Assembly: GCF_000702905.1 (NCBI RefSeq)
Contig: NZ_JNKR01000001.1
Coordinates: forward strand, 62,001 to 126,000
Direction of reading: 5' to 3'
Source of the DNA: Mitsuokella jalaludinii DSM 13811
Lineage (GTDB): Bacteria > Bacillota > Negativicutes > Selenomonadales > Selenomonadaceae
DNA length: 64,000 nt
Shown here: positions 2,164 to 63,718 of the stretch, in pieces
How positions within the stretch are numbered: position 1 is the first letter of the stretch
How the letters are laid out: each line of letters begins with the position of its first letter
Translations under genes and position numbers: made by a program
The notes under the pieces: model-generated
Seen by the model: only the letters and a program-made list of their open reading frames with translations
Told to the model about the DNA's origin: nothing
The model's database searches: none

Positions 2164-2496
2164 TCATTCAAACCAGATCCAGAACACGCCGATGACCGCG
2201 ATGGCGATGGCCGCGATGTTGCGGTGATAGTAGTCGGCGAGCCAGCCGATGTGCGTCACATCGTAGAGCCAGCCGAGCACGCGCAGCGCGATGTAGTGGA
2301 TGATACAGCCGACGAGATAGGCGAGGCCGACCTCGATGGCGATGACCAGCATCGTGATGGACAGGCCGATCATCGCGAAGATGCCCGTGAAGAACAGGCC
2401 GATGATGATGAGGGCCGCCACGATGACGAAGAGCGAGCCGCCGAGCGCAACGCCGATGCCCGCAAGGGCTGCCAGGAATCCCTTCAAGCTATCCAT
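2164..2496 (-). CDS. Small membrane protein of unknown function
   Basis: 110 residues with three or four hydrophobic helices (about 8-33, 37-62 and 92-108) and an amphipathic stretch around GWLYDVTHIGWLADYYHRN. I do not recognise the family. The ATG at MDSLKGF is preceded by a near-perfect AAGGAGGAG, so an upstream 23-residue extension is rejected. It lies directly downstream of the IscB insertion and directly upstream of the SSS symporter. The insertion ends within a few bases of its ribosome site, so its native promoter may have been displaced or replaced by one from the element. Confidence 0.75.
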   Translation of the reverse strand: MDSLKGFLAALAGIGVALGGSLFVIVAALIIIGLFFTGIFAMIGLSITMLVIAIEVGLAYLVGCIIHYIALRVLGWLYDVTHIGWLADYYHRNIAAIAIAVIGVFWIWFE

Positions 2497-2522
2497 AAGA
2501 ACTCCTCCTTTTAAAAATATGG

Positions 2523-2560
2523 TCAAATGTGTCCGGAAGTGTTTGTCTAAGCACATTTGA
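2523..2560 (-). repeat. Long inverted repeat at the 3' end of iscB (element right-end hairpin or terminator)
   Basis: TCAAATGTG and CACATTTGA form a perfect 9-bp inverted repeat with a 20-base loop, extendable by GG/CC with one bulged base. The distal arm lies inside the last codons of iscB. On the minus strand the stem is followed by ATATTTTT. It may be the subterminal palindrome expected at the end of an IS200/IS605-type element, a terminator, or both. Confidence 0.6.
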
Positions 2561-3791
2561 ACCAATATATCTTGTCATATCTCCACAAAAGCCTTGCTTT
2601 CAGAGCATTAACCCGTTTGCAATGCTTTGTAGGGGATTGGAAATTCAACTGGTTTTTGTCGGGATACATTGCGGTAACGTAACCCGTATGAGTTTCACCG
2701 TTGCGATAAGTGTAGGTCACATAATCCCGATGATGGAAACCGCAGACTTCATCGACTCCAGCTTTGTTTTTGCGACGCATAGGCTTTATAGTCCACTCTT
2801 CGATGTCTATGTTCTCTGGCTTCAAGTCAGTTATACAGACTGCATCATTGGAGTGAGTCTTTGCAATATCCCAGTCTTCACGTTTATTGGCGGTGTTGCC
2901 GCCAGTAGTCAAAACTAGCGAACCTCTTTGTTGCAGTTGTTCTCTGAACCAATGCTTGCCCTGCATAACACGCTGGGCATCATCAAGTCCTTCGACATGA
3001 CCTGTGGAGCCAATCAAAGCATAGTACCTATCTGCAAACTGTGATTCCCTGCCAAAAGTTTTAGCATGGCATTTAGGGCATAGTGTTATCAGATTACTTA
3101 TAGTATCAGCCCCGCCGGTCTTTCGTGGAGTAATGTGATGTACTTCAAAACGAGTTTTGGTCTTGCCGCATTCCACACACTTGCAGCCATCACGATGAAT
3201 AGCTGCCAGCCGAAGATTGTTGTCCAGCCTGTTCGACTTCTGGTATTGCCAACGATAAGGCTTGTAGCCATCGGTTAGTGCCCGAATGTCAATTTTTACG
3301 TCTTCCAACCAGTAGCCGTCAATGCGAACCCACTGCCTAAGTCTGTCAATTACTCGAAGAATTGCCTGTTTTCTTTGGATTATCGAAGGCATTAGCCTGC
3401 CGCTACGCCTTGATGATGCACGGTTTAGAAACCTGGCGGGGCGATACTGCTTATGGTATCTATGATACCTGCGATAGCCACGACGAACGGTCAGCAAATG
3501 CTTGACATCCTTGCGCTGCTCGATAGTGCCTTTGAACAAAACCTTGTTTCTGGTCTGGCATTTCTGCACCAGAGCCATGCCGACATGATTCGCACCATCG
3601 TCAATACCACAACGAATTTCATCATTGTTGGGATTATCCATGACTTTATTCAATTGAATTATCATTGGAAACTTCGATACCAGTCGAGCTTTATATTGAC
3701 GAACAAGCCGCCAAGCATTCTGCTCGATTGTTGGGTCAAGTTGTTTTCTTTTCGCGTCCAAAACGAACGCATATTTCTTGATTTTTGGCAT
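2547..3791 (-). CDS. iscB: IscB-type RNA-guided HNH/RuvC endonuclease
   Basis: 414 residues in the IscB order: a PLMP-like N-terminal domain ([11 protein letters not shown], about 10-45); RuvC-I (CGIDDG, D64); an arginine-rich bridge helix with the RRXRR signature ([10 protein letters not shown], about 103-124); a RuvC-II strand (VKIDIRAL, about 165-172); an HNH domain (CVEC at 205-208, VHHI at 217-220, ISNL, CPKCH at 238-242); RuvC-III (KTHSNDAV, 311-318); and a C-terminal domain ([18 protein letters not shown]) like the IscB TAM-interacting region. IscB proteins cut DNA guided by an omega-RNA encoded just upstream and are the accepted ancestors of Cas9. Oddities are QLDP in place of PLMP and Asp where most relatives have Glu in RuvC-II. 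ATG at MPKIKK has GGAAAGGTGG upstream. No tnpA is nearby. Base composition is clearly lower in GC than the flanks. Confidence 0.88.
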
Positions 3792-4130
3792 CTCTGCCAC
3801 CTTTCCTTTTGGAAGAATTTTCCTTCTTGCCCATGTCGTCAGGAAGCCCATGTGTTTCCCTGTTATCACCGCAGGACATTAGCGATGTTTCTTAGTTGGC
3901 ACTCTCAGAGCAGCGGACTGATGGTTTACATCCGCAGGTGAGTCTTTAGCTTATTCTGATAACTTAGTTCATCCCGCAAGCAGCTTTCGCTGAACACGGT
4001 CACTGGGGCTTGAAACGGCTTCATAAGCATCTATGCATGAGATATTTGTCCACTTATGCGTAGATTTATCGATACTATCGACTACTTATTAGTTCGTCCT
4101 TTCAAGTTCTGTCATGCAACTTCATGATTC
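3792..4130 (-). ncRNA. Putative omega-RNA region of the IscB locus
   Basis: About 340 nt without a plausible gene lie between iscB and the end of uvrA, the place where IscB omega-RNAs are encoded. It contains several inverted repeats: ATCTATGCATGAG with CTTATGCGTAGAT (4029-4065, 13 pairs, two of them G-T on the plus strand), GTTCA with TGAAC (3967-3995, enclosing CAGC-TTTC-GCTG), GCGGA with TCCGC (3913-3935) and ACAT with ATGT (3876-3888). The exact 5' guide/scaffold boundary and the element left end cannot be fixed by eye. Identification rests on position and structure, not on a covariance match. Confidence 0.55.
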
Positions 4131-4178: not shown

Positions 4179-7007
<2,829 letters not shown>

Positions 7008-19551: not shown

Positions 19552-19794
19552 AAAAAATCCCTGACCGTCATGTGACGATCAGGGACGATGATTCGCGGTA
19601 CCACCCTGCTTGATGCCAAAGCATCCTCTCGGTGCCGTAACGTGGCAGGCGTCGGCCGTTTCGCTCGAAGGCTCCCCGGCCGCTCCTCCGCAGTGAGTTC
19701 AGCGCTTCCCGTCACCGGCTCCCACCTGCCGCCGGCTCTCTTGAGACGTCCTGCACCTACTGCTCTGCATCCTCGGATTTACGTGTTTACATAT
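19552..19794 (-). promoter_or_regulatory. T-box riboswitch of leuS (specifier CUC, Leu)
   Basis: The T-box sequence AGGGTGGTACCGCG is at 19594-19607. The Stem I specifier loop reads GAA-CTC-AC with the Leu codon CTC at 19695-19697. The terminator stem TCCCTGA-CGTCA / TGACG-TCAGGGA followed by TTTTTT (19553-19584) is the expression platform. Uncharged tRNA-Leu should favour the antiterminator and switch leuS on. Confidence 0.95.
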
Positions 19795-61426: not shown

Positions 61427-62211
61427 TATTTCACCTCAAAGCCATACTTCGCAAAGCGTTCCTTGTTCTTATCATTCGAGACGAAGGCCAGGAAATCCTT
61501 TGCCGTATCGAGATGTTTTGTGTCATTCAGGATGGCGGCAGGATAGACGATGTCTTTATGCGTGCCTGCCGGGGCCTTGGCTACGACGCGGACATCCTGC
61601 GAGATGGCTGCATCCGTCGCGTAGACGAGCCCCGCATCGGCTTCGCCCGAAGCGACCCAGGCGAGGACCTGGCGGACATCTGAGCCATAGACAGCCTTGG
61701 CCTTGACCGCATCGAGGATGCCGAGCTTTGTGAGGATTTCCTCTGAATACTGGCCGACCGGCACGCCTTTCGGCTCGCCGAGGGCGATGTGCTGGAGCTT
61801 GTCGCTCGTCAGCTGGTCAAACGAGGTGATGTCCTTATCGCTGTCCTTCGGGACGATCAGCACGACTTCATTCTGAAGGAGATCTTTGCGCGTGCCTTCC
61901 TTCAGCAGGCCCTTCTTGTCGAGGGCGTCCATCTGCTTCTGCGCCGCAGAGAAGAACAGGTCCGCCGTGCCGCCATTCTCGATGGCCTGCTGCAGCGCCC
62001 CTGAACTGCCGTAGTTGAACACGACCTTGACATCTGGGTGCTCTTCCTCGTACGCCTTGCCGATCTCATTCATGACATCGGTCAGGCTTGCCGCTGCAGA
62101 GACGTGGAGTTCCACGGGTTCCTTGGCAGATGTGGTCGATTGGCTTTGGCCTCCGCAGCCGCTCGCGAGTGCGAGCAGGCAGACTGCCATCAGTGTGAGT
62201 AGTTTTTTCAT
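61426..62211 (-). CDS. modA: Molybdate-binding lipoprotein
   Basis: 261 residues. Lipoprotein signal (LLALASGCGGQ, lipidated Cys19). ModA fold motifs VSAAASLTDVMNEIGKAYEE, FNYGSSGALQQAIENGGTADLFFSA, ALGEPKGVPVGQYSEEIL and ADAGLVYATDA. It captures molybdate or tungstate outside the inner membrane. The start at MKKLLTLM has AAAAGGAG upstream; a longer reading by 27 residues would translate the riboswitch and is rejected. Confidence 0.96.
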   Translation of the reverse strand: MKKLLTLMAVCLLALASGCGGQSQSTTSAKEPVELHVSAAASLTDVMNEIGKAYEEEHPDVKVVFNYGSSGALQQAIENGGTADLFFSAAQKQMDALDKKGLLKEGTRKDLLQNEVVLIVPKDSDKDITSFDQLTSDKLQHIALGEPKGVPVGQYSEEILTKLGILDAVKAKAVYGSDVRQVLAWVASGEADAGLVYATDAAISQDVRVVAKAPAGTHKDIVYPAAILNDTKHLDTAKDFLAFVSNDKNKERFAKYGFEVK

Positions 62212-62235
62212 GGTGCATAGCTCCTTTTCAAAAAC

Positions 62236-62338
62236 GGAAGGCAGTGCCATTTCCAGCACTGCCCTGTGGGTTTGACCCAGGCTCAGCCTCATAGATGAAA
62301 GACATCATCCTTAGAGTGCTTTCGCTCGGAGTTTCGAC
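62236..62338 (-). promoter_or_regulatory. Probable molybdenum-cofactor-type (Moco/Tuco) riboswitch leader of modABC
   Basis: The minus-strand leader has ACTCCGAGC-GAAA-GC (GNRA-capped stem), GATG/CATC and TGGG-TCAA-CCCA stems, then GGCAGTGC / GCACTGCC followed by TTCCGTTTTTG, a terminator-like stem just before the modA ribosome site. The CTCCGAGC element and genomic position suit the Moco RNA family, but I cannot confirm the full consensus. A TATAAT lies just upstream (62345-62350). Confidence 0.5.
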
Positions 62339-62391
62339 TTATCCATTATAGCGGAAAATGAAGCTCTCTGCCATGAGAAATATCACGCCTC

Positions 62392-63420: not shown

Positions 63421-63718
63421 AAAAAAGGCTCTCCTCGCACGCACGCGAAAAAAGCCTTCCTATCGTAAAAAACCGTGCCACAAAGACACAGCTTTGCTGA
63501 TAGCAATCGCCTTCCCATCGCTCGCAGGTCGTAACGGTGATTTTCGGACAGGCAGTTCTTCTGGCTCGGTTCATCGCTCCTCTGCGCCTTCCCAGATGTT
63601 CATCCAGTGACATATCTATGCAGATTCGCTCCCCTTACAGCGGCGGGACCGCGCCGGCTTTGACCGGCTTCTCTTTTCAGCGCCTTGTGGCGTCACCTGT
63701 TCCCTCTTTATGGAATTG
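63421..63718 (-). promoter_or_regulatory. Cobalamin riboswitch upstream of cbiK, with terminator
   Basis: On the minus strand: GGGAACAGGTG, CGGTCCCGCCGCTGTAAG, GTCACTGG, CTGGGAAGGCGC, GCGATGAACCGAGCCAGAAG and CTGCCTGTCC (aptamer about 63540-63716) match the B12 riboswitch core in order. A terminator stem AAGGCT / AGCCTT followed by TTTTTTG (63421-63458) ends the leader. Cobalamin binding should switch cbiK off. Confidence 0.95.

What the first reader, a model, noticed from the sequence alone, without database searches (positions are those of the whole stretch)
2547..3791. IscB RNA-guided nuclease gene in a Negativicute chromosome
Seen: PLMP-like, RuvC-I, bridge helix (RRXRR), RuvC-II, HNH and RuvC-III segments in IscB order in 414 residues, with HNH and two of three RuvC acids intact. 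Known: IscB with omega-RNA is a programmable nuclease and the Cas9 ancestor. Unusual: QLDP replaces PLMP, and RuvC-II has Asp (KIDIRAL) where most relatives have Glu. The protein is compact and may belong to a divergent, less studied subfamily.
Basis: partly seen in the sequence, partly recalled or inferred. Interest (0 to 1): 0.82.

Follow-up and report, generated by a model that had tools for sequence, protein, structure and literature searches.

The report
RNA-guided nuclease element at ribosome-binding sites
The gene is a real, apparently intact IscB (a small RNA-guided DNA cutter related to the ancestor of Cas9) carried on a 1.6 kb mobile element, and it belongs to a group, shared by gut bacteria and phages, whose copies sit exactly at the ribosome-binding sequence in front of other genes, which suggests that this sequence is part of what the nuclease recognises.

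Summary
Confirmed: an intact IscB lies on the minus strand at 2547-3791 (NCBIfam guided_IscB, 273.5 bits, cut-off 175). Closest solved structure: 9k2z HfmIscB. The claim of an unusual RuvC-II is wrong. The catalytic Glu is E163 (YWLEDVKID), invariant in 37 relatives and aligned with the VE/LE of ordinary IscBs; D168 is the ordinary Asp of the FD/ID motif. The element (about 2509-4099; 45% G+C in a 61% window) is absent from two sister species. It belongs to a clade in Selenomonas, a Lachnospiraceae MAG, many viral contigs and Staphylococcus myophages. All 29 canonical copies read end directly before a Shine-Dalgarno GGAG/GGGA/GGGG plus start codon. In the five copies with clean empty alleles the breakpoint is guide|GGRG, and the guide side of the occupied site reads GGAC. 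Best reading: a transposase-less, homing-type IscB-omegaRNA element whose TAM includes the Shine-Dalgarno sequence, so it enters operons without breaking genes. Insertion-site evidence is strong; cleavage, TAM and homing are inferred. Main limit: key IscB and HEARO papers were not readable here, so novelty of the site rule is provisional.

The parts
2547..3791 (-). iscB coding sequence, 414 aa (RuvC D64/E163/D316, HNH H218-H219, bridge helix R103-R117, TAG stop 2547-2549)
3792..4099 (-). omega-RNA scaffold, beginning GGAC and ending at the iscB start codon; HEARO-like fold with strong covariation
   Evidence: HEARO full-length match at 3815-4050, 24.6 bits, below gathering 83; 24-sequence alignment with 39 of 56 pairs showing two-sided changes, 97.4% of cells paired against 80.3% in shuffles
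4100..4115 (-). guide segment ATGACAGAACTTGAAA: flanking host DNA fused to the 5' end of the omega-RNA (16-nt length taken from known IscBs)
   Evidence: sequence diverges between copies exactly 5' of GGAC; the only match with up to 2 mismatches in its own genome is this locus
2509..4099 (-). whole mobile element, about 1.59 kb, from GGAC to ...TTTTTAAAA
   Evidence: absent from sister genomes G001 (L061) and G002 (L062), where uvrA and the downstream gene are adjacent; 45% G+C against 61% for the window
2502..2508 (-). GGAGGAG: Shine-Dalgarno of the downstream gene and inferred TAM-side half of the target site
   Evidence: equivalent empty sites
2164..2496 (-). downstream host gene, 110-aa membrane protein with ATG at 2496, translated from the SD bordering the element (the longer 133-aa ORF with TTG start at 2565 overlaps the element)
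   Evidence: no Pfam or NCBIfam family
4179..7007 (-). upstream host gene uvrA, same strand; a likely source of read-through transcription of guide, omega-RNA and iscB (inference)
   Evidence: NF001503 PRK00349.1, 1602.8 bits

Best explanation
This is an intact, transposase-less IscB-omegaRNA (HEARO-type) mobile element of the HfmIscB clade that inserts into Shine-Dalgarno sequences. The omega-RNA scaffold begins at GGAC. The host DNA just upstream is transcribed as its guide, so each copy is programmed against the allele it occupies. On an empty allele the guide-matching stretch is followed directly by the SD motif GGRG, which I infer contains the TAM. IscB-omegaRNA would cut there, and repair from an occupied copy would copy the element in (homing). 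Insertion places GGAC next to the guide and element sequence before the rebuilt SD, so neither junction keeps guide plus TAM, which would prevent self-cutting. Because the SD is rebuilt and orientation follows the downstream gene, the element rides in operons without breaking genes. Shown: IscB identity, intact catalytic residues, RNA structure, purifying selection, boundaries, different sites in different hosts, and breakpoints at guide|GGRG in five clean occupied/empty pairs. Inferred: RNA-guided cleavage by this copy, the exact TAM, homing, and transcription by read-through. Unknown: how a copy reaches a new, non-allelic site.
For: Protein: (dN/dS). RNA. Insertion rule: all 29 canonical copies end directly before GGAG, GGGA or GGGG and a start codon; such positions make up about 0.18% of comparable sequence, though a fairer null would be co-directional gene pairs. 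Clean empty alleles: JDF86 against BS1, CCTATAAA|GGAGAAAAG; Golestan101-M against PSU4 and BS1, GACAGTAA|GGGGATAC; RSM-J51Sa against BS2, AAATAAAAA|GGAGGATA; S. ruminantium L006 against L112, ATATACTGG|GGAGGAAATC; L032 against L134, AATCGAAG|GGAGGG. Left junction is GGAC in 27 copies and GGGC in one. The window copy is absent from G001 and G002. The guide has no second target in its own genome. No Y1 transposase match lies on the contig that holds the element.
Against: No biochemical data on this copy. For the window itself the sister empty sites differ too much to show the exact guide|GGRG junction; it is inferred from the five other pairs. The GG is shared by both junctions, so the guide/TAM register is ambiguous by 2-3 nt. 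GGRG could reflect survival of insertions that leave genes intact rather than recognition alone. The own genome has 14 matches to the Y1 transposase family on other contigs, so mobilisation in trans is not excluded for it, although two carrier genomes (G172, 99% complete; G155, 86%) show none. Some relatives (L046/L047 and the L074-L078 group) follow other boundary rules.
Confidence: 0.72

Rival explanations
1. An IS200/IS605-like (ISC) element moved by a Y1 transposase in trans; IscB serves to retain the element after excision rather than to home, and GGRG is the transposase's site.
For: Y1 transposases in the own genome and in most carrier genomes searched; a small hairpin follows the 5' end; a recurrent inverted motif near the two ends of several copies. 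IS200/605 nucleases are known to favour their own element (PMC11870625).
Against: No Y1_Tnp match on the element's contig; no match in carrier genomes G172 and G155; no transposase annotated next to the copies in the four annotated phage regions except one 'transposase' 1.4 kb downstream in Golestan101-M. The inverted end motif is weak in the window copy.
Confidence: 0.17
2. A domesticated or defensive IscB whose guide protects the host against an invader.
For: Single chromosomal copy under purifying selection.
Against: The guide is flanking host DNA and differs in every copy; no viral contig in IMG/VR has guide plus GGRG; the same clade is carried by phages themselves.
Confidence: 0.04
3. An inactive relic.
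For: Relics exist in the clade: RSM-J51Sa (109-codon remnant) and a frame-broken copy in G172.
Against: Open frame, all catalytic residues present, dN/dS about 0.05, paired omega-RNA.
Confidence: 0.07

Closest known systems
HfmIscB (PDB 9k2z)
   Same: Same clade: full-length alignment with the window protein at E 1e-171; top structural match; its closest relatives here are viral-contig copies L039 and L042 (86-87%).
   Different: Its paper was not found in the library, so its TAM and natural insertion site could not be compared.
OgeuIscB / OrufIscB and IscB-omegaRNA (HEARO) systems
   Same: Domain order, catalytic residues, omega-RNA directly upstream, guide at its 5' end; TAM of OrufIscB NTAAA, engineered OgeuIscB best at NWRGNA (PMC13180657). 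HEARO nucleases rarely sit beside TnpA, and over 16% of their contigs are viral (PMC9755519).
   Different: OgeuIscB-type proteins align at about 15-20% identity in the fold search; the Rfam HEARO model scores 24.6 bits here against a cut-off of 83; insertion at GGRG of a Shine-Dalgarno is not described in the papers read.
IsrB (DtIsrB)
   Same: Same RuvC/bridge helix/TAM-interacting architecture and guide placement; TAM 3' of the target (PMC9581776).
   Different: IsrB lacks HNH and nicks; DtIsrB prefers TTGA/ATGA TAMs. The Shine-Dalgarno discussed in that paper is the nuclease gene's own, inside its omega-RNA, not the insertion site.
Free-standing phage homing endonucleases
   Same: Works like: would cut the unoccupied allele and spread by recombination; carried in myophages between genes.
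   Different: Recognition would be by a captured RNA guide rather than by the protein, so target specificity changes with each new site (inference).

Membership tests
IscB (OMEGA nuclease) | PLMP - RuvC-I - bridge helix - RuvC-II - HNH - RuvC-III order at 400-500 aa | tested here: met
   PLMP signature reads QLDP
IscB (OMEGA nuclease) | Intact RuvC D-E-D and HNH histidine | tested here: met
   D64, E163, D316, H218/H219 invariant in 37 relatives
IscB (OMEGA nuclease) | Structured omega-RNA directly upstream with the guide at its 5' end | tested here: met
IscB (OMEGA nuclease) | IscB fold | tested here: met
   AlphaFold2 pLDDT 77, pTM 0.65; top PDB matches HfmIscB, OgeuIscB, TbaIscB. Residues 122-130, 166-190 and 265-272 are low confidence
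IscB (OMEGA nuclease) | RNA-guided, TAM-dependent DNA cleavage | not testable with these tools
   needs biochemistry
Rfam RF02033 HEARO | Score at or above the curated gathering threshold | tested here: not met
   24.6 bits against 83 for the window; 25-40 bits in eight relatives; none at gathering
ISC / IS200-IS605 element | Y1 transposase (TnpA) in the element | tested here: not met
   no Y1_Tnp match on the element's contig; 14 matches elsewhere in the genome
Homing element | Empty allele interrupted precisely at the recognised site | tested here: met
   five clean occupied/empty pairs in the clade; for the window copy, presence/absence only
Homing element | Spread by cutting and copying | not testable with these tools
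   needs a cross or plasmid-transfer assay

The most novel reading that the evidence does not exclude
A clade of IscB elements in Bacillota and their phages uses the Shine-Dalgarno sequence as its TAM, so that an RNA-guided homing element is restricted to gene starts, rebuilds the ribosome-binding site on insertion and is protected from self-cutting by a GGRG to GGRC change at the guide-side junction.
Probability: 0.55. Interest if true: 0.75.

Novelty: new variant of a known kind. Interest (0 to 1): 0.58.

Why it matters
What IscB does in nature when no transposase accompanies it is poorly settled. Here bacteria and phages provide matched occupied and empty alleles with a defined guide and a predicted TAM, so homing can be tested directly. 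If the TAM is the Shine-Dalgarno, it explains how such elements enter dense phage operons without harm, and gives a compact (about 411-432 aa) nuclease family with a GG-containing TAM for the HfmIscB structure to explain.

Tried and rejected
(1) D168 as a replaced RuvC-II Glu: rejected by alignment and by the strand position of E163 in the model. (2) A second target for the guide in its own genome or in IMG/VR: none. (3) A transposase inside or beside the element: none on the contig. (4) Terminal inverted repeats as a mobility signal: a motif recurs in inverted orientation in several copies, not convincingly in the window. (5) Clean target-site duplication: repeats of 2-4 nt fit, but not the same length in each pair. 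(6) Literature on a Shine-Dalgarno insertion rule for IscB/HEARO: not found in the held library; the 2021 IscB paper, the 2023 transposon-nuclease paper and a 2009 paper looked up for the HEARO motif were not held.

Full report
Observation. The ORF at 2547-3791 on the minus strand is an IscB by every test run: NCBIfam guided_IscB 273.5 bits against a cut-off of 175, Pfam RRXRR and HNH, PDB sequence match HfmIscB at 1e-171, and fold match to HfmIscB, OgeuIscB and TbaIscB (model pLDDT 77). It is the only copy in its genome.

Correction. In the alignment of 37 clade members E163 and D168 are both invariant. With seven divergent IscBs added, E163 falls in the VE column and D168 in the FD column, and the same holds against an Ogeu-type IscB. 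All three RuvC acids are therefore present. QLDP is a real departure from PLMP, but L-[DSA]-P-T is normal for this clade.

Omega-RNA. Upstream of the gene, Rfam HEARO matches along its whole length at 3815-4050 with 24.6 bits, below its gathering score of 83. Relatives score 25-40 bits. An alignment of 24 upstream regions folds into a 56-pair structure. Of its cells 97.4% pair, against 80.3% after shuffling and 31-41% when the partners are slid. Thirty-nine pairs show changes on both sides, which 0 of 500 shuffles reached. The first helix begins at the invariant GGAC at 4099. Upstream of GGAC the copies share nothing, which marks the guide.

The element. Sister genomes G001 and G002 have uvrA and the downstream gene side by side without the insert. 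The insert has 45% G+C in a 61% G+C window. It is 82-85% identical in DNA to S. ruminantium copies, while uvrA of the two genera is 76% identical. dN/dS is 0.04-0.05 between the window and four S. ruminantium copies.

Distribution. Close relatives were found in Selenomonadaceae, an uncultured Lachnospiraceae MAG, other members of the phylum at 52-56%, many IMG/VR contigs and Staphylococcus myophages of the genera Baoshanvirus and Silviavirus.

The insertion rule. Every canonical copy (29 read, window included) ends directly before GGAG, GGGA or GGGG followed by a start codon on the same strand. Five pairs with clean empty alleles show the breakpoint between guide and GGRG: phages JDF86, Golestan101-M and RSM-J51Sa, and S. 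ruminantium copies L006 and L032. In these pairs the sequence just 5' of the breakpoint, which is the guide of the occupied copy, reads the same in the empty allele. In the occupied state the guide is followed by GGAC (27 of 28 left ends; GGGC in one). The search for left ends used a pattern containing that C, so the count is descriptive; the alignment, made without it, shows the same for the bacterial and viral-contig copies. About 0.18% of positions in comparable sequence are GGRG with a start codon 3-14 nt on. Genes in operons are often followed by an SD, so the empty-allele breakpoints are the stronger evidence.

Mechanism. Known IscBs cut DNA matched by the guide and flanked 3' by a TAM (PMC13180657, PMC9755519). 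Applied here, guide plus GGRG describes exactly the empty allele, and insertion destroys that arrangement on both sides. I therefore favour a homing-type, SD-directed element. Cleavage, TAM and homing are not shown. How new sites are reached is unknown: the guide matches only the allele it already occupies, so ectopic moves need another agent, such as a Y1 transposase in trans, of which the own genome holds 14 matches, or rare repair events.

Literature. HEARO nucleases are known to be rarely linked to TnpA and often viral (PMC9755519). Searches for an SD insertion rule found none in the held library, but three central papers were not held. From memory only, HEARO elements were once described as following ATGA or GTGA; the ATGACAAAT site of the Silviavirus copies would fit that, whereas the canonical copies treated here do not.

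Noticed in passing
L046/L047 (Silviavirus phages VL10, MRSA13), 2201-2494 and 3720-3780: These copies lack the GGAC 5' end and sit at an ATGACAAAT stop/start overlap with a short flanking duplication, unlike the SD-type copies.
   Followed up: partly
L074, L076, L077, L078, L095, L111 after the iscB stop: These relatives have a palindromic stretch (e.g. GGTTATA...TATAACC) between an SD-like GGAGG and the next ATG, so another kind of 3' end.
   Followed up: no
L039, L042, L094, L088, L035: 5' end and the stretch after the stop codon: A motif like ATAGACAAATGTGTA near the 5' end recurs in inverted orientation near the 3' end; weak in the window copy. Possibly a recognition sequence of an unknown mobilising enzyme.
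   Followed up: partly
L048 (phage RSM-J51Sa) 2215-2910: Remnant of the element with intact outer boundaries but only a 109-codon piece of iscB.
   Followed up: partly
L072/L073 (G172 contig 60): A second, frame-broken iscB copy in a Selenomonadaceae genome with no Y1 transposase match.
   Followed up: no
G000, contigs other than C1: Fourteen matches to the Y1 transposase family, several truncated at contig ends.
   Followed up: no
window 19578-19782, 62205-62343, 63534-63715 (all minus): T-box leader, molybdenum cofactor riboswitch and cobalamin riboswitch above Rfam gathering scores.
   Followed up: no
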